A stretch of 64,000 nt of DNA from Spirochaeta thermophila DSM 6192 (GTDB lineage Bacteria > Spirochaetota > Spirochaetia > Winmispirales > Winmispiraceae), in contig NC_014484.1 in the NCBI RefSeq assembly GCF_000147075.1, positions 2,125,501 through 2,189,500 of the forward strand, in the 5' to 3' direction. Both the position numbers and the translations under genes were made by a program. Position 1 is the stretch's first letter. Each line of letters starts with the position of its first letter. The notes beneath the pieces are model-generated. The model did not search any database. It worked only from the letters and a program-made list of their open reading frames with translations, and was not told the DNA's origin. Shown here piece by piece: positions 26,533 to 46,965 of this stretch.

Positions 26533-27828
26533 CTACACCAGGGCACGCCCAGGCTCCTCCACGTACCTCGCGAGCCCGGCCATGAAGGCAGCCCCCACTG
26601 CGCCGTCTATGGTCCTGTGGTCGCAGGAGAGGGTGAGGCGCACCACGCGCGCCGGCACCACGCCTCCTCCCTCCCACACAGGTTCGGTGGTCACCGCCCC
26701 CACGGCGAGTATGGCCGAGGCCGGAGGATTGATGATGGCCGTGAACTCCGTGATCCCATACGACCCCAGGTTGCTGATGGTGAAGCCCGCTCCGGTGTAC
26801 TCCTCAGGGGAGAGTCCCCCCTCACGGGCCCTAGCGATGAGGTCCTTGAGCTCCCGATCGATCTCCTCCACGGTCTTGTACTCGCACGAGCGGACCACGG
26901 GGGTGATGAGGCCGCCGGGGAGCGCCACGGCGAGCCCTATGTCCACGGTATCGAAGTAGCGGATGGCCTCACCCTCCCATGAGGAGAGGATCTGCGGATG
27001 CCGCACGAGGGCCTCGGCAGCGAGCTTCATGAGGAAGGCGTTGAAGGAGAGCCGCTCCTGCCGGCCTTCGTTCACCTGCTCCCGCAGGGTAAGGAGTCTG
27101 TCGGCGCGGACCTTCACCGTGAGGGTGAAGTGGGGGGCGGTGCGCTTCGACTCGGAGAGCCGCCGCGCGATGGCCGCCCGCATGGGCGTCACGGGCTCCC
27201 GCCCGCCCGCAAGCCGCCGCGGCCCACCTGAGGCCGCGGGGGAAGCGGCGGGTCCGGCCTTCGCGGCCTCCTCCACGTCACGCACCGTCACCCTGCCGCC
27301 CGGTCCGGAGCCGCGCACCAGCCGCAGGTCCACCCCCAGTTCCCTCGCCCGCTTCCGCGCGAGCGGACTCGCCTTCACCCTCCCTGCAGGAGGAGGCACC
27401 TCCAGCGCCGCCCTTCCCCGGAGGTCCTCCACCCCCCCTCCCGCCACGCGCCCCTGCGCCCCCTGCGGCCCGGGCTCCTCCTTCGGGGAAGGCGCCTCCA
27501 CCGCAGGCGGCCGGTCGGGCTCCGACCCGGCCTTCGGCGTCTCCTCAGCCGCCGCGCTGATCTCGGAGAGGAGCGAGGAGATATCCTCCCCCTCCTCCCC
27601 GAGCACCGCGATCACCTCACCCACCCGGGCCTTCTCCCCTTCCTTCTTGAGGATCTCCAGGAGCACGCCACTCTGGGTGGACTCGTAGTCCATCGTGGCC
27701 TTGTCCGTCTCCACCTCGCAGAGCACGTCCCCGCTCTCCACCCTCTCGCCCTTCTTCTTGTGCCAGGCGACGATCGTCCCCTCCTCCATCGTGGGAGAGA
27801 GGGCTATCATGAGCACCTTTTCCGCCAT
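26533..27828 (-). CDS. pdhC: Pyruvate dehydrogenase E2, dihydrolipoyl acetyltransferase
   Basis: A 431-residue E2 that moves the acetyl group from lipoyl-lysine to CoA. The single lipoyl domain (1-80) has E-T-D-K-A with Lys43 as the lipoylated residue. A Pro/Ala/Glu-rich linker leads to the peripheral-subunit-binding domain (~150-185, A-S-P-L-A-R-K-R-A-R-E-L-G-V). The catalytic domain ends with D-H-R-T-I-D-G, containing the active-site His. It follows pdhB by 3 bp. No E3 (lpd) is in the window. Oxo-acid preference is inferred from E1; branched-chain use is not excluded. Confidence 0.92.
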   Translation of the reverse strand: MAEKVLMIALSPTMEEGTIVAWHKKKGERVESGDVLCEVETDKATMDYESTQSGVLLEILKKEGEKARVGEVIAVLGEEGEDISSLLSEISAAAEETPKAGSEPDRPPAVEAPSPKEEPGPQGAQGRVAGGGVEDLRGRAALEVPPPAGRVKASPLARKRARELGVDLRLVRGSGPGGRVTVRDVEEAAKAGPAASPAASGGPRRLAGGREPVTPMRAAIARRLSESKRTAPHFTLTVKVRADRLLTLREQVNEGRQERLSFNAFLMKLAAEALVRHPQILSSWEGEAIRYFDTVDIGLAVALPGGLITPVVRSCEYKTVEEIDRELKDLIARAREGGLSPEEYTGAGFTISNLGSYGITEFTAIINPPASAILAVGAVTTEPVWEGGGVVPARVVRLTLSCDHRTIDGAVGAAFMAGLARYVEEPGRALV

Positions 27829-27831
27829 AGT

Positions 27832-28812
27832 CTACTCCAGATAGAGCACCCTGGAGACCGCCGCCACCACCTTCTCCACGGAAGACTGCACCGCGAGCTC
27901 CAGCGTGTGGTTGTAGGGCATGGGGACGTCCTCGGACGTCACGATCTCCACCTGGGCGTCCAGGTCGTCGAAACAGGCCTTGCCGACGGCCCAGGCCACG
28001 AACGAGGCAGGACCGCACATGGGCCAGGCCTCGTCCACCACCACGGCCCGGTGGGTCTTGCGCACCGAGGAGAAGATCGTCTCGGTATCGAGCGGCCTGA
28101 GCGACCTGAGGTCCACCACCTCCACATCCACCCCCCGCTCCTCGAGGACCTTCGCCGCCTCCATCACCACCTTGAGCGGTTTGGAGTAGGTGATCACCGA
28201 GACATCCTTCCCCGGCCGCTTGATATCGGCCTTCCCGATGGGGACGAGGTACTCCTCCTCGGGCACCTCCCCCTCCCAGGCGTACATCAGCTCCGCCTCG
28301 AGCATCACCACCGGGTCGTCGTCCCTTATGGCCGACTTGAGGAGCCCCTTCGCATCATAGGGCGTGGCCGGCGCCACCACCTTGAGGCCCGGCACATGCA
28401 TCCAGAAGGCCGCGAGCGACTGGGAGTGCTGGGACGAGAGATACTCCGCAGGCCCGTTGGGACCCCTGAAGACGATCGGCACCTTGAGCTGACCGCCCGA
28501 CATGTGACGCATCTTGGCCGCATTGTTGATCACCTGGTCCATCGCCAGGATGGCGAAGTTGTGGGTCATCCACTCCACCACCGGCCTGAGCCCTGCGATC
28601 GCCGCCCCTATCCCTATCCCCGTGAACCCCAGCTCCGATATGGGGGTGTCGATCACCCGTTTCGGCCCGTACTTGACGAGCAGCCCCCTGCTCACCTTGT
28701 AGGCCCCGTCGTACTCCCCCACCTCCTCACCCATGAGGAACACCCGTTCGTCCCTCGCCATCTCCTCCTCGAGGGCCCGGTTGAGCGCCTCCCTGTAGGT
28801 CATGACCGCCAT
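27832..28812 (-). CDS. pdhB: Pyruvate dehydrogenase E1 beta subunit
   Basis: A 326-residue subunit completing the thiamine-diphosphate site with E1alpha. E-E-V-G-E-Y-D-G-A-Y-K-V, D-T-P-I-S-E-L-G-F-T-G-I-G-I-G-A-A and the transketolase C-terminal D-L-R-S-L-R-P-L-D are all present. ATG 28812 follows GGGGAGGATG and overlaps pdhA by 13 bp. A longer frame to 29256 would run deep into pdhA. Confidence 0.93.
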   Translation of the reverse strand: MAVMTYREALNRALEEEMARDERVFLMGEEVGEYDGAYKVSRGLLVKYGPKRVIDTPISELGFTGIGIGAAIAGLRPVVEWMTHNFAILAMDQVINNAAKMRHMSGGQLKVPIVFRGPNGPAEYLSSQHSQSLAAFWMHVPGLKVVAPATPYDAKGLLKSAIRDDDPVVMLEAELMYAWEGEVPEEEYLVPIGKADIKRPGKDVSVITYSKPLKVVMEAAKVLEERGVDVEVVDLRSLRPLDTETIFSSVRKTHRAVVVDEAWPMCGPASFVAWAVGKACFDDLDAQVEIVTSEDVPMPYNHTLELAVQSSVEKVVAAVSRVLYLE

Positions 28813-29816
28813 ATCGCATCCTCCCCTGCGTATACGTCTTCGTACATGGTGTGGAGGGCAGGCTCCTCGCTCTGCTCCGCGAACGCCACCGCCTCCTCCA
28901 CCTCCCTCTGGATCTCGTCGTAGAGGCTGCGGAAGGTCTCCTCGTCGAGGAGCCCCTCCTCCTCCATGAAGGTCTTGAGCCTGCCGATGGGATCCTGACG
29001 CTTGTACTCCTCGAGCTCCTCCCTCGTACGATACTTCGCAGGATCGCTCATGGAGTGGCCCTTGTACCGGTAGGTCCGGGCCTCGATGAGCACCGGTTGC
29101 CCCTCCCTCGCGCGGGAGACCGCCTCGCCCGTGGCCTCGTACACCGCCCGCACGTCCATCCCATCCACCTGGACGCCGGGGATGTCGTACGCCGCACCGA
29201 GCTTGTAGAGGTCGGCCACGGCCGAGACCTTCTTCCAGAAGGTCCCCATACCCCACTGGTTGTTCTCGCAGACGTAGACCACCGGCAGCTCCCAGATCTT
29301 CGCCATGTTGAGCGCCTCGTGGAAGGCCCCCTGGTGGATGGCGCCGTCCCCGAAGTACACGAGCGTCACCCCCCCCGTGCCCTGGTACTTCTGCGCGAAC
29401 GCCACCCCGGTCCCCACCGGGATCTGGGCACCCACGATCCCGTTGCCGCCGAGGAAGTGCTTCTCCACGTCGAACATGTGCATGGACCCTCCCTTCCCCC
29501 TGCTACACCCCGTCACCTTCCCGAAGAGCTCGGCCATCACCACCTTCGGATCCATGCCGCAGGCGAGGGCATGGCCGTGATCCCGGTAGGCCGTGACCAC
29601 GTAGTCCTTCGAAAGATCGATCGCGGCGATGGAACCCACGGCCACCGCCTCCTGCCCGATGTAGAGGTGGCAGAACCCCCCGATCTTCCTGAGCCCGTAC
29701 ATCTGGGCCGCCTTCTCCTCGAAGAGGCGGATGAGGAGCATCTCCCTCAGGAACTTCATGTAGAGATCCCGGTCGGACCTCTCCCCTCTCTGTGTGCGAG
29801 GGCGTTTCACTCCCAT
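28800..29816 (-). CDS. pdhA: Pyruvate dehydrogenase E1 alpha subunit
   Basis: A 338-residue thiamine-diphosphate subunit that decarboxylates pyruvate and acylates the E2 lipoyl group. The ThDP motif reads G-D-G-A-I-H-Q-G-A-F... ending in E-N-N, and the phosphorylation-loop region Y-R-Y-K-G-H-S-M-S-D-P is conserved. G-G-F-C-H-L-Y-I-G-Q-E-A and the G-K-G-G-S-M-H-M-F-D block point to pyruvate rather than branched-chain 2-oxo acids. It overlaps the upstream PNPOx-like gene by 10 bp. Confidence 0.94.
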   Translation of the reverse strand: MGVKRPRTQRGERSDRDLYMKFLREMLLIRLFEEKAAQMYGLRKIGGFCHLYIGQEAVAVGSIAAIDLSKDYVVTAYRDHGHALACGMDPKVVMAELFGKVTGCSRGKGGSMHMFDVEKHFLGGNGIVGAQIPVGTGVAFAQKYQGTGGVTLVYFGDGAIHQGAFHEALNMAKIWELPVVYVCENNQWGMGTFWKKVSAVADLYKLGAAYDIPGVQVDGMDVRAVYEATGEAVSRAREGQPVLIEARTYRYKGHSMSDPAKYRTREELEEYKRQDPIGRLKTFMEEEGLLDEETFRSLYDEIQREVEEAVAFAEQSEEPALHTMYEDVYAGEDAIWRS

Positions 29817-43327: not shown

Positions 43328-43355
43328 AAAAACGGCCGCCGGCACCCCGGCGGCC
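43328..43355 (-). terminator. Terminator after the E1-lipoyl-KASIII gene
   Basis: Perfect stem GGCCGCCGG-4nt-CCGGCGGCC followed on the minus strand by GTTTTTG. Confidence 0.85.
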
Positions 43356-43394
43356 ACGTAATCCCATCCCTCCTTGACAGGCGGAAAGAGAGAC

Positions 43395-46300
43395 TCACAG
43401 GGTCTTCACCACCCCTCCGGCAAAGGTGAACCCTGCCCCGAAGGCCGTGAGCCCCAGGACCATCCCGGACCGTGCCGTGGGGAAGATCTCCTCGAAGCAG
43501 AGGGGAATGGTCGTAGCCGAGGTGTTGCCCAGCCGGGCGATGTTGGAGAACACCTTCTCCTCCGGCACCCCCATACGCTTCCGCACCGCATCGATGATCC
43601 GCTGGTTCGCCTGGTGCGGCACCAGCAGATCCATCTCCTCCAGACTGAATCCTGCCTCATCCAGGGCCCTCCTGAGGATGTGGATGAGGGCCTTCACCGC
43701 ACGCTGGTAGACCGCAGGCCCGTCCATGAAGATGGGCTCCTCGTAGGGGATCCTGAGGATGGACCCATCCTCCCCTTCGGCCGAGAGCACAGGCCGGTAG
43801 AGGAAGCCCTTACCCCCGGCCCCCGCCTTCGCACCTGCCACGAGCGTGGCGCTCGCCCCATCGGCAAAGACCGGTGCGGTGGAGGGATCGGAGACATCGA
43901 GCCTCCTCGAGAGCACATCGGCGGTCACCACGAGCACGGTATCCTCGGGTCGGGAGGCGAGATAATCGTAGGCGATCTGGAGGGCATAGAGATAGCCGGA
44001 GCAGGCTGCGTTGATGTCGTAGGCCGGGCAGGTGATCCCCTGCTTCCCCCGGCCCAGCCTGTGCTGGAGCAGGGTGGCAAGGGCCGGGCTGTTGTGGGGC
44101 GGCGTGGTGGTCGCACAGAGGATGAGATCCACGTCCTCGATCCCCGCGCCCGTGCGCTCGAAGAGCCTCTGTACCGCATCCACCGAGAGCGAGAGGATAT
44201 CCTCATCCTCGGAGGCCCACCGCCGTTCATGGATCCCGGTACGACGCACGATGTCCTCGGGGGTCCAGGTGGGACACATCTTCGAGATCTCCTCGTTGGT
44301 CACCACCCTCGAGCCGGGCCTGCCGGCCACGTCCACGATCACGGGGAGGGCCGCATCCCTTCCCTCCTCCTGCGGACGCTCCTCACGCGCCGCATCGATC
44401 CTCACCCCGGGCTTCTTCTTCGCCCCGCCGAGCCCCTCGATGATGGGCGCACCAGGCTCCTCCTGGGTGATCGGCTTCTCCTTGGATGCAGCCCCCTCGG
44501 GGAGCCTTATCCGGGCGATGGCGCTCCCCACCGGCGCCGACTCCCCTTCCTTCACCATGAGCTCCTCCACCACCCCATCGACCGAGGCCCGTATCTCCAC
44601 CGCCGCCTTGTCGGCCTCTGCCTCGGCCACGATCTCGCCTGCCTTGATGGCATCGCCCTCCTTCACCTTCCACTCGAGGATGGTGATCCGCTCGTCCGAC
44701 GGGCTCGAGCCCACCGCCTCCAGGAAGTAGTAGCCGGCCTCGGCCTTGGGCTTCTCCTGCCACCGTACGGTGCCGCCGAGCATCCGCACCGCCGTGGTGA
44801 GCACCCGCTTGTACGAGGGGAGCACCTCGAGCTGACAGGGGAAGTTGCACGGCACGTAGGTGTCGGCCCGCGTCACACGGACCGCCTCCACCGGAACGCC
44901 GGCCTCCTCGGCCACGGTGGCCACGATCTCCGCCCCCATACCCGCGGTGTGGGTGTCCTCGTGCACCACGATGAGCCTGCCGGTCTTGCGCACCGAGGCG
45001 AGCACCGCCTCCTTGTCCCACGGCACGATGCTCCGCAGGTCGATCACCTCCGCCTCCACCCCGTACCGGGAGAGGGTCTCGGCTGCCCTGAGGCAGTGGA
45101 GGATGTTGTTCCCCCACGTCACCATGGTGAGGTCCTCCCCCCGTCGAAGGATCTTCGCCTTGCCTATGGGCACCAGGTGGCGGCGGACATCACGTGTGGC
45201 GGCGAACTGCCTGTTGTTGAGCATGCTCTTGGGATAGAAGAAGAGGGTGGGCCTCCCCGAGGCAAAGGCGGCGTTGAGGAGGCCTGCGGCGTCGTCGGCC
45301 GAGCTCGGCATGAACACATCCACGCCCGGTATGTGGGCCGCAATCCCCTCCATGGTGCTCGCGTGGAAGGGCCCGAGGCCGGGCTTATACCCCCCACACG
45401 AGATCATCACGATGACAGGACACTCCCACCCCCCGTTCGTGCGCCACCACATACTCCCCAGCTCGCTGATGATCTGGTTGAAGGCGATGGGGAGGAAGTC
45501 GGCAAACTGGAGGAAGGCCACAGGCCGCTTCCCTGCGAGGGCCATCCCGATGGAGATCCCCAGGATGCTCGACTCGGCGAGGGGTGAGTTCTGGACCCTG
45601 CCGGGGAACTTCCGGGTGAGCCCCCTCGTCACCCCGAAGACATCCCCCTTGGGATCCTCTATGTCCTCTCCGAAGAGGAAGACGCCCGGGTTCCCGGCGA
45701 GGTGCTTCTCCAGCACCCGGTTGATCGCATCCCGCATCACGAGGACCTCCTCCTCGGAGAGGGGAGGTGCCTCGTCCTCGATCGATGGGTCCTCCAGCTC
45801 CGGCGGGAGGGGCTTCTTCGCGGTGAAGATGGGCTCGGGGTCGGGCACGAGCTGGCACCTCGCGGCGAGGCCTTCGAGCTCGGCCCTCCAGGCGGCCTCC
45901 TTCTCCAAGAGCTCGGCCTCGGAGAAGCCGCTCTCTATGAGGGCGGCCCTGAGCTTCTTGATCGGATCCGCGGCCTCCCGCACCCTCCGCCGTTCGTCCT
46001 CGGGCCGGTAGATCGACTCGTCGTCCGCATTCGTGTGGTTGCACAGCCGCTCCACATCGAAGACCACGATCCGGGGCTCCCGGTCATCCCGCATCCTCGC
46101 CACCACGTCCCTGAGGGTGTGGTATGCCGTCACCGCATCGGTGCCGTCCACATAGGTGATGGGGATGCCGTAGAAGGAGTCCACCCTCCCCCCTGGAAGC
46201 TCGTAGAAGGTCTTGCCCTCGGTCCTGGTGGAGATGGCGTACTTGTTGTCCTCGATGAAGAAGAGCACGGGGAGCCGGTCCCTCACCGCATGGGCGACAG

Positions 46301-46772
46301 CCTCGAGCACCTCCCCCTGCTGGGTCATGCCGTCGCCCAGGGAGCAGAGGACCACGGGCGCCCCCTCATCGTCGCGCACCGCCTTGGCCACACCCACCGC
46401 CTGGAGGGCGGAATTGCCGACCGGCCCCACGATGGAGAGGATCTTGAGGTGCGGGGCGCTGATGTGCGCGCTCATCTGTCTCCCTGCGGAGTGCGACTCC
46501 CGGTTGGTGAAGAGCGAGTGGAAGAACTGCGCAGGATCGAGCCCCCTCGCGAGCATGAGGGCCTTGTCGCGGTAGTGGCAGTGAAGCCAGTCGTGCTCGG
46601 TAAGGAGCGGGGCGAGCACCGCGGAGGCCTCGTGGCCTGCACCGGAGACCGTGAAGAAGGCCTCGCCCCGCTTGGTGTAGTCCTCTTCCAGGCGATCTAT
46701 CTCCCTGGCGGAGAACATGTATCGGTAGAGGTCGAGAAAAAGCGCTCTCTCGGATTCGTTGAGACGTGCCAT
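43395..46772 (-). CDS. Fused 2-oxoacid dehydrogenase E1alpha-E1beta, lipoyl domain and KASIII
   Basis: One 1125-residue polypeptide. Residues 1-~310 are E1alpha, with the ThDP motif L-G-D-G-M-T (146-150) ending at E-D-N (176). ~335-670 are E1beta (G-E-D-I-E-D-P-K-G-D-V-F; D-L-R-S-I-V-P-W-D), closest in feel to branched-chain (2-oxoisovalerate) types. ~690-760 is a lipoyl domain, E-A-D-K-A with Lys722. After a charged linker, ~810-1125 is a ketoacyl-ACP synthase III (FabH) with Cys924 (A-A-C-S-G), His1053 (P-H-Q-A-N) and Asn1083 (L-G-N-T). There is no subunit-binding or acyltransferase (E2) domain. I infer oxidative decarboxylation of a branched-chain oxo acid, capture on the lipoyl arm and condensation with malonyl-ACP to start iso/anteiso fatty acids. 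ATG 46772 follows GGGGGA. Own promoter and terminator. Confidence 0.88.
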   Translation of the reverse strand: MARLNESERALFLDLYRYMFSAREIDRLEEDYTKRGEAFFTVSGAGHEASAVLAPLLTEHDWLHCHYRDKALMLARGLDPAQFFHSLFTNRESHSAGRQMSAHISAPHLKILSIVGPVGNSALQAVGVAKAVRDDEGAPVVLCSLGDGMTQQGEVLEAVAHAVRDRLPVLFFIEDNKYAISTRTEGKTFYELPGGRVDSFYGIPITYVDGTDAVTAYHTLRDVVARMRDDREPRIVVFDVERLCNHTNADDESIYRPEDERRRVREAADPIKKLRAALIESGFSEAELLEKEAAWRAELEGLAARCQLVPDPEPIFTAKKPLPPELEDPSIEDEAPPLSEEEVLVMRDAINRVLEKHLAGNPGVFLFGEDIEDPKGDVFGVTRGLTRKFPGRVQNSPLAESSILGISIGMALAGKRPVAFLQFADFLPIAFNQIISELGSMWWRTNGGWECPVIVMISCGGYKPGLGPFHASTMEGIAAHIPGVDVFMPSSADDAAGLLNAAFASGRPTLFFYPKSMLNNRQFAATRDVRRHLVPIGKAKILRRGEDLTMVTWGNNILHCLRAAETLSRYGVEAEVIDLRSIVPWDKEAVLASVRKTGRLIVVHEDTHTAGMGAEIVATVAEEAGVPVEAVRVTRADTYVPCNFPCQLEVLPSYKRVLTTAVRMLGGTVRWQEKPKAEAGYYFLEAVGSSPSDERITILEWKVKEGDAIKAGEIVAEAEADKAAVEIRASVDGVVEELMVKEGESAPVGSAIARIRLPEGAASKEKPITQEEPGAPIIEGLGGAKKKPGVRIDAAREERPQEEGRDAALPVIVDVAGRPGSRVVTNEEISKMCPTWTPEDIVRRTGIHERRWASEDEDILSLSVDAVQRLFERTGAGIEDVDLILCATTTPPHNSPALATLLQHRLGRGKQGITCPAYDINAACSGYLYALQIAYDYLASRPEDTVLVVTADVLSRRLDVSDPSTAPVFADGASATLVAGAKAGAGGKGFLYRPVLSAEGEDGSILRIPYEEPIFMDGPAVYQRAVKALIHILRRALDEAGFSLEEMDLLVPHQANQRIIDAVRKRMGVPEEKVFSNIARLGNTSATTIPLCFEEIFPTARSGMVLGLTAFGAGFTFAGGVVKTL

Positions 46773-46804: not shown

Positions 46805-46833
46805 ATGGTACCCCGCCCTCCACGGGGTGTCAA
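46805..46833 (-). promoter_or_regulatory. Promoter for the E1-lipoyl-KASIII gene
   Basis: Consensus TTGACA (46833-46828), 17 nt, TACCAT (46810-46805), about 32 nt upstream of the ATG. Confidence 0.65.
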
Positions 46834-46934: not shown

Positions 46935-46965
46935 ACAAAAACGGCCCGGCACGTGGCCGGGCCGT
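46935..46965 (-). terminator. Terminator after the beta-helix lipoprotein
   Basis: 10-bp stem ACGGCCCGGC / GGCCGGGCCGT with a 5-nt loop, followed on the minus strand by TTTTTG. Confidence 0.85.

What the first reader, a model, noticed from the sequence alone, without database searches (positions are those of the whole stretch)
43395..46772. E1alpha-E1beta-lipoyl-KASIII single-chain enzyme
One continuous frame carries the full ThDP E1 pair, a lipoyl domain with a lipoylation Lys, and a KASIII with an intact Cys-His-Asn triad. The E2 acyltransferase and its subunit-binding domain are missing. KASIII normally uses acyl-CoA made by a separate branched-chain dehydrogenase complex. Here the acyl-lipoyl arm could deliver its acyl group straight to Cys924, skipping free CoA, as a built-in starter for iso/anteiso fatty acids. 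E1 fusions are known; I do not recall a characterised enzyme joining all four parts. The gene stands alone with its own promoter and terminator.
Basis: partly seen in the sequence, partly recalled or inferred. Interest (0 to 1): 0.9.

Follow-up and report, generated by a model that had tools for sequence, protein, structure and literature searches.

The report
Fused E1–lipoyl–KASIII fatty-acid starter enzyme
A single bacterial protein joins the enzyme that decarboxylates a 2-oxo acid, a lipoyl swinging arm and the enzyme that starts fatty-acid chains, and comparison with about 90 relatives suggests it starts (probably branched) fatty acids without going through coenzyme A.

Summary
Observation confirmed. 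Window 46772..43395 (−) is one 1125-aa frame: E1α, E1β, lipoyl domain, KASIII; no E2 acyltransferase, no subunit-binding domain. Not an artefact: 80 further full-length homologues were fetched (Spirochaetes, Planctomycetes, Kiritimatiellota, Lentisphaerae, others). Lipoyl Lys722, KASIII Cys924/His1053 and E1 catalytic residues are invariant in 89 aligned; Asn1083 in 88 (one gap).

New evidence for direct lipoyl-to-KASIII transfer: both residues that clamp the CoA adenine in E. coli FabH (Trp32, Arg151) are gone in all 90 fusions, while Cys-His-Asn and Arg249 stay; true FabHs from the same genomes or class all keep Trp32. Other spirochaetes carry an E2-like protein whose acyltransferase core is replaced by KASIII; one such genome shows no E2 acyltransferase at all. 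In five fusion-bearing relatives the only E2 found sits in a PDH operon.

Substrate is untested; branched-chain 2-oxo acids fit best (E1α nearest BCKDH; iso-fatty acids in Salinispira and Kiritimatiellota). No published description found in the open-access library. New variant of a known kind.

The parts
43395..46772 (-). whole gene, 1125 aa: E1alpha-E1beta-lipoyl-KASIII
45900..46727 (-). E1alpha-like ThDP domain (aa 16-291); invariant H47, E48, GDG 146-148 region, N176, H246, D250, D251, Y255, R256
   Evidence: Pfam E1_dh 3.6e-42; conservation over 89 sequences
45216..45740 (-). E1beta pyrimidine-binding domain (aa 345-519); invariant E400 and H470
   Evidence: Pfam Transket_pyr 1.1e-26
44838..45164 (-). 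E1beta C-terminal domain (aa 537-645)
   Evidence: Pfam Transketolase_C 6.5e-31
44508..44681 (-). lipoyl domain (aa 698-755)
   Evidence: Pfam Biotin_lipoyl 6.9e-16
44607..44609 (-). lipoyl-attachment Lys722 (E-A-D-K-A), invariant in 89 of 89
44337..44507 (-). flexible linker aa 756-812, pLDDT < 50 at 783-805, with a partly conserved KPxTxExPGxP motif (aa 766-776)
   Evidence: AlphaFold2; conservation
43398..44336 (-). KASIII (FabH-like) domain aa 813-1125
   Evidence: Pfam; NCBIfam PRK09352 268 bits vs cut-off 249, TIGR00747 239 vs 292; FabH fold
44001..44003 (-). catalytic Cys924 (E. coli C112)
   Evidence: 90 of 90 fusions
43614..43616 (-). catalytic His1053 (E. coli H244)
   Evidence: 90 of 90
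43524..43526 (-). catalytic Asn1083 (E. coli N274)
   Evidence: 89 of 90, one gap
44253..44255 (-). Asp840 in place of E. coli FabH Trp32 (stacks on CoA adenine)
   Evidence: never W in 90 fusions (D67 E11 A8, others); role of W32: PMC4606726
43884..43886 (-). Pro963 in place of E. coli FabH Arg151 (other half of the adenine clamp)
   Evidence: never R in 90 fusions; PMC4606726
44088..44090 (-). Ser895 in place of E. coli FabH Phe87 (acyl pocket); Thr or Ser in 89 of 90 fusions
46805..46833 (-). sigma-70-like promoter TTGACA-17-TACCAT upstream of the ATG
   Evidence: consensus match only
43332..43357 (-). terminator-like hairpin after the gene
46941..46965 (-). terminator-like hairpin of the gene upstream, separating it from this one

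Best explanation
A self-contained, CoA-independent initiation enzyme for type II fatty-acid synthesis. The E1 half decarboxylates a 2-oxo acid (most likely a branched-chain one) on ThDP and reductively acylates the lipoyl arm on Lys722. Instead of passing the acyl group to CoA through an E2 core, the arm swings to the fused KASIII, whose Cys924 takes the acyl group. KASIII then condenses it with malonyl-ACP to give the first 3-oxoacyl-ACP (iso or anteiso if the acid is branched), and a dihydrolipoamide dehydrogenase acting in trans reoxidises the arm. Shown here: domain order, intact catalytic residues, loss of the CoA-adenine clamp, wide conservation, presence of E3 and lipoate-attachment genes in carriers. 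Inferred: every chemical step, the substrate and the product.
For: All four domains in one frame with catalytic residues invariant in 89 full-length sequences, N1083 in 88 with one gap. KASIII of 90 fusions: E. coli Trp32 position never W and Arg151 position never R, whereas C112/H244/N274, N247 and R249 are kept; 31 of 31 stand-alone FabHs of the class have W and R, and 19 of 19 FabHs above the family cut-off from fusion-bearing genomes of other phyla keep W. W32/R151 sandwich the CoA adenine (PMC4606726). No E2 core or PSBD in the chain. A second architecture, E1alpha-beta plus lipoyl-PSBD-KASIII, shows KASIII standing in the place of an E2 core, and one genome with it (G011, 96% complete) has no PF00198 match but has E3 and lipoate-attachment genes. 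Intact fusion carriers among the relatives all have E3-like and LplA/LipB-like genes. One Kiritimatiellia carrier has a gene read by eye as lipoate-protein ligase next to the fusion (L101). Branched substrate: E1alpha scores 128/106 bits to BCKDH alpha chains of Thermus/human versus 72/68 to PDH alpha chains of human/Geobacillus; leuA-leuB-like genes lie directly upstream in L044; iso-C15:0 is 11.7% in Salinispira pacifica and iso-C12/14/18 are major in cultured Kiritimatiellota, whose MAG relatives carry the fusion and whose FabH has Phe87 as in E. coli.
Against: A separate fabH exists in this genome and most carriers, and a PDH and a second E2 exist here, so an acyl-CoA route is available. 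Loss of Trp32 alone is not unique: some other planctomycete KASIII paralogues have L/V there; Arg151 also varies in planctomycete FabHs. E1beta scores differ little between BCKDH and PDH. Neighbour evidence rests on single loci; other neighbours are unrelated. Whether organisms with the exact fusion make iso-fatty acids is mostly inferred from relatives.
Confidence: 0.62

Rival explanations
1. Same CoA-free relay but the 2-oxo acid is pyruvate (or 2-oxobutyrate), so the enzyme starts straight-chain fatty acids with acetyl (or propionyl) instead of branched acyl groups.
For: NCBIfam E1 matches are mostly PDH-named models although all are below cut-off; fusion is common in Pirellulaceae, which by general knowledge make mainly straight-chain acids; IlvA-like gene next to the fusion in L089.
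Against: E1alpha much nearer BCKDH than PDH alpha chains; Thr/Ser at the Phe87 position opens the acyl pocket; the genome already has a PDH and a FabH for acetyl.
Confidence: 0.15
2. The KASIII domain acts as an acyltransferase, moving the acyl group from lipoyl to an ACP thiol for a specialised metabolite, as reported for the lipoyl-dependent glycolyl-ACP loading of NapB/NapD and QncN/QncL (recalled, paper not held).
For: The recalled precedent shows lipoyl-to-ACP transfer; the gene is patchily distributed like accessory genes (7 of 296 Spirochaetota).
Against: His1053 and Asn1083, needed for malonyl decarboxylation, are conserved (89 of 89 and 88 of 89 with one gap); KASIII acyltransferases usually lose the Asn (general knowledge); no biosynthetic cluster or dedicated ACP beside the gene in the contexts read.
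Confidence: 0.1
3. The domains are only tethered for proximity: an E2 core from another complex in trans takes the acyl group to CoA, and KASIII then uses acyl-CoA as FabHs do.
For: E2 cores and FabH are present in most carriers.
Against: CoA-adenine clamp lost in 90 of 90 fusions while kept in FabHs of the same class; no PSBD to join an E2 core; G011 has the sister architecture with no E2 at all.
Confidence: 0.1
4. Assembly error or chance read-through joining separate genes.
For: None for this gene; one relative (G048) has copies broken by frameshifts.
Against: Same order in a single frame in 80 of 80 independent records and 14 spirochaete relatives.
Confidence: 0.01

Closest known systems
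[quoted passage not shown]
   Same: ThDP E1 alpha and beta folds with conserved catalytic residues and a lipoyl domain with its Lys; E1alpha nearest BCKDH alpha chains
   Different: E1 alpha, beta and lipoyl are one chain; no E2 acyltransferase core, no PSBD; acceptor appears to be KASIII, not CoA
FabH / beta-ketoacyl-ACP synthase III
   Same: FabH fold, Cys-His-Asn triad, Arg249 on the ACP side
   Different: fused behind a lipoyl arm; both CoA-adenine clamp residues lost; TIGR00747 score 239 below its 292 cut-off
NapB/NapD and QncN/QncL two-component transketolases (recalled; paper not held)
   Same: ThDP enzyme with lipoyl arm passing an acyl unit to an ACP-bound path without CoA
   Different: recalled as transketolase-like, ketose-phosphate substrates, NRPS extender units; whether they contain a KASIII domain could not be checked here
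E1alpha-beta + lipoyl-PSBD-KASIII pair in other Spirochaetia (L052, L053, L155; found here)
   Same: lipoyl arm and KASIII on one chain in place of an E2 core
   Different: E1 on a separate protein, PSBD present (PF02817 6e-9 in L052), Tyr at position 32 and Arg151 kept; common origin with the fusion not resolved (AU p 0.446)

Membership tests
2-oxo acid dehydrogenase complex | E1 alpha and beta ThDP subunits with catalytic residues | tested here: met
   Pfam hits, invariant H246, D250, D251, E400, H470 in 89 sequences
2-oxo acid dehydrogenase complex | lipoyl domain with modifiable Lys | tested here: met
   Biotin_lipoyl 6.9e-16, K722 in 89 of 89; modification itself not testable
2-oxo acid dehydrogenase complex | E2 acyltransferase core (PF00198) making acyl-CoA | tested here: not met
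   no PF00198 in the chain at E up to 1; E2 cores elsewhere in the genome
2-oxo acid dehydrogenase complex | peripheral subunit-binding domain | tested here: not met
   no PF02817
FabH (KASIII using acyl-CoA) | Cys-His-Asn triad | tested here: met
   Cys and His 90 of 90, Asn 89 of 90 with one gap
FabH (KASIII using acyl-CoA) | Trp32/Arg151 CoA-adenine clamp | tested here: not met
   0 of 90 W, 0 of 90 R
FabH (KASIII using acyl-CoA) | score above TIGR00747 cut-off | tested here: not met
   239 vs 292; PRK09352 is passed, 268 vs 249
FabH (KASIII using acyl-CoA) | condensation with malonyl-ACP | not testable with these tools
   residues kept; needs assay
lipoyl-dependent ACP-loading transketolases (NapB/D, QncN/L) | ketose-phosphate donor, glycolyl-ACP product | not tested
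   sequences and paper not at hand

The most novel reading that the evidence does not exclude
A widespread but undescribed enzyme class in which KASIII has replaced the E2 core of a 2-oxo acid dehydrogenase, so that fatty-acid synthesis is started directly from a 2-oxo acid through a lipoyl arm with no free acyl-CoA, reached in two architectures (single chain; E1 plus lipoyl-PSBD-KASIII).
Probability: 0.5. Interest if true: 0.85.

Novelty: new variant of a known kind. Interest (0 to 1): 0.75.

Why it matters
Branched-chain fatty acids are taught as starting from acyl-CoA made by a separate BCKDH and used by FabH. If this enzyme works as inferred, several bacterial phyla have a CoA-free route in which decarboxylation, carrier and condensation sit on one chain. 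It would explain how organisms whose FabH looks E. coli-like (Phe87) can make iso-fatty acids, would add lipoate as a cofactor of fatty-acid initiation, and would give a single-gene module for making branched acyl-ACP.

Tried and rejected
Artefact or frameshift: rejected by 80 single-frame homologues. Absence of fabH and E2 in this genome as proof of the model: tested and not met. Conserved gene neighbourhood as a clue to function: none consistent; aconitase-like, SDR, BMC-domain and other neighbours vary by lineage; BCAA-related neighbours occur in single loci only and are close to what chance could give, so used as weak support. Common origin of the fusion and the lipoyl-PSBD-KASIII form: FastTree joined them with support 1.0 but the careful IQ-TREE run did not resolve it, so not claimed. 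E1beta as substrate marker: too small a difference. Literature for the fusion or for NapD/QncL domain content: nothing found, or not held; one further literature search failed on an over-long term.

Full report
What is there. The reported frame is real: 46772..43395 on the minus strand encodes 1125 aa with one ATG start and no internal stop. Pfam finds E1_dh 16-291, Transket_pyr 345-519, Transketolase_C 537-645, a lipoyl domain 698-755 and the two KASIII domains 918-981 and 1037-1123. At E up to 1 there is no E2 acyltransferase core and no E3-binding domain. A sigma-70-like promoter lies just upstream and terminator-like hairpins lie on both sides, so the gene appears to stand alone. AlphaFold2 gives mean pLDDT 88.2, with confidence under 50 only at 783-805, the linker between lipoyl and KASIII; Foldseek matches are FabH structures and E1beta chains.

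It is conserved, not an accident. The window lies in a single-contig 2,472,645-base genome, a size that from memory fits Spirochaeta thermophila DSM 6192. Among 60 relatives the chain recurs full length at about 50-90% identity in more than a dozen; in an even sample of the phylum it is in 7 of 296, so it is patchy. A scan of GTDB genomes gave 295 related places; the 80 best all cover nearly the whole chain and each carries it as one long ORF, median 1127 aa. They include Spirochaetes, Planctomycetes, Kiritimatiellota, Lentisphaerae, Verrucomicrobia, a Sumerlaeota MAG, Accumulibacter MAGs, a Xenococcus MAG and a Marinobacter contig; some of the last may be mis-binned. Over 89 distinct full-length sequences the lipoyl Lys722, Cys924, His1053, E1beta E400 and H470, and E1alpha H246, D250, D251 and N176 are invariant, and Asn1083 is kept in 88 with one gap.

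The new evidence on mechanism. In E. coli-type FabH the adenine of CoA is stacked between Trp32 and Arg151 (PMC4606726). I aligned the KASIII parts on E. coli FabH taken from NC_000913. In 90 distinct fusions the Trp32 position is D67, E11, A8 and a few others, never W, and the Arg151 position is P35, F30, Q7 and others, never R; C112 and H244 are kept 90 of 90, N274 89 of 90 (one gap), N247 and R249 90 of 90. After moving lipoyl-PSBD-KASIII chains out of the control set, all 31 stand-alone FabHs from the class have W and R. As a second control, 19 FabHs scoring above the family cut-off in fusion-bearing genomes of other phyla all keep W; Arg151 varies there (R in 13), and a few other KASIII paralogues lack W but keep R. 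So loss of both is specific to the fusion in this sample. A condensing enzyme that keeps its catalysis but has dropped its CoA clamp, and is tied to a lipoyl arm, is what direct acyl-lipoyl delivery predicts. This is inference from residues, not an assay.

A second architecture points the same way. In other Spirochaetia an E1alpha-beta chain of about 660 aa is followed by a 500-535 aa chain of lipoyl domain, subunit-binding domain and KASIII (L052, L053, L155; the PSBD passes its Pfam cut-off in L052 only and is read from motif in the others). That chain is an E2 with KASIII where the acyltransferase core should be. Genome G011 (96% complete) has it, has E3 and lipoate-attachment genes, and shows no E2 core at all. 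The two KASIII groups are each one clade (100/100), but whether they share one origin is not settled.

This genome has a good fabH at C1:96681-97649, a true PDH complex inside the window at about 26533-29816 (E1alpha passes TIGR03182) and a second E1/E2 set near C1:908-912 kb of unknown substrate. So absence of fabH and of a second E2 is not met here. In G002, G013, G028, G038 and G051 the only E2 found lies in a PDH operon, which leaves those organisms without a recognisable BCKDH E2; this uses coordinates from two searches and MAG completeness limits it (G051 is 81%). E3-like and LplA/LipB-like genes were found in all intact carriers among the relatives.

Substrate. E1alpha scores 128 and 106 bits against BCKDH alpha chains of Thermus and human, against 72 and 68 for PDH alpha chains of human and Geobacillus; E1beta is less telling, 210 versus 193. 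The Phe87 position of FabH is Thr or Ser in 89 of 90 fusions, which by general knowledge widens the acyl pocket, though S. aureus FabH takes branched acids with Phe there, so this is only a hint. Salinispira pacifica has 11.7% iso-C15:0 (PMC4511686); genome G048 matches it in size but its fusion copies are broken by frameshifts. Cultured Kiritimatiellota have major iso-C12, iso-C14 and iso-C18 acids (PMC7356697, PMC10880615), related MAGs carry the fusion, and their separate FabHs have Phe87 like E. coli. LeuA-LeuB-like genes lie just upstream in one spirochaete (L044). Against this, the fusion is common in Pirellulaceae, which from general knowledge make mainly straight-chain acids, so the substrate may differ by lineage.

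Verdict. I found no description of the four-part chain in the open-access library; subscription papers were not searchable, and the recalled NapB/NapD and QncN/QncL work could not be read. I rate it a new variant of a known kind.

Noticed in passing
L052:1273-4758 (G011), L053:6763-10236 (G016), L155:2712-4316 (G014), L055 (G039): E1alpha-beta chain followed by lipoyl-PSBD-KASIII: an E2 whose acyltransferase core is replaced by KASIII; G011 shows no E2 core in the genome.
   Followed up: partly
window 26533-29816 (-): Pyruvate dehydrogenase operon (E1alpha, E1beta, E2) in the same window; E1alpha passes TIGR03182.
   Followed up: partly
L051:4826-8315 (G048) and G048:C1:1146697-1148886: Two copies of the fusion gene in one genome, both interrupted by frameshifts; sequencing indels or decay.
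   Followed up: partly
L044:3682-6476, L089:4792-5841, L098:1415-2620: Genes read by eye as leuA-leuB, ilvA and a Glu/Leu dehydrogenase next to the fusion in three unrelated loci; number is small enough for chance.
   Followed up: no
L101:4737-5810: Gene read by eye as lipoate-protein ligase directly upstream of the fusion in a Kiritimatiellia MAG.
   Followed up: no
L102, L124, L131, L133, L134, just downstream of the fusion: A gene that looks like a bacterial-microcompartment shell protein follows the fusion in five Pirellulaceae loci.
   Followed up: no
L119 (Marinobacter halodurans), L079 and L082 (Accumulibacter MAGs): Fusion in Gammaproteobacteria/Betaproteobacteria-labelled records; transposase-like gene near it in L119; transfer or mis-assignment.
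   Followed up: no
L200, L204, L206, L207, L209: Planctomycete KASIII paralogues with Leu/Val at the Trp32 position but Arg151 kept, below the FabH cut-off; function unknown.
   Followed up: no
window 44475-44505 region, aa 766-776: Linker motif KPxTxExPGxP between lipoyl and KASIII is conserved across phyla although the rest of the linker is not; possible docking element.
   Followed up: no
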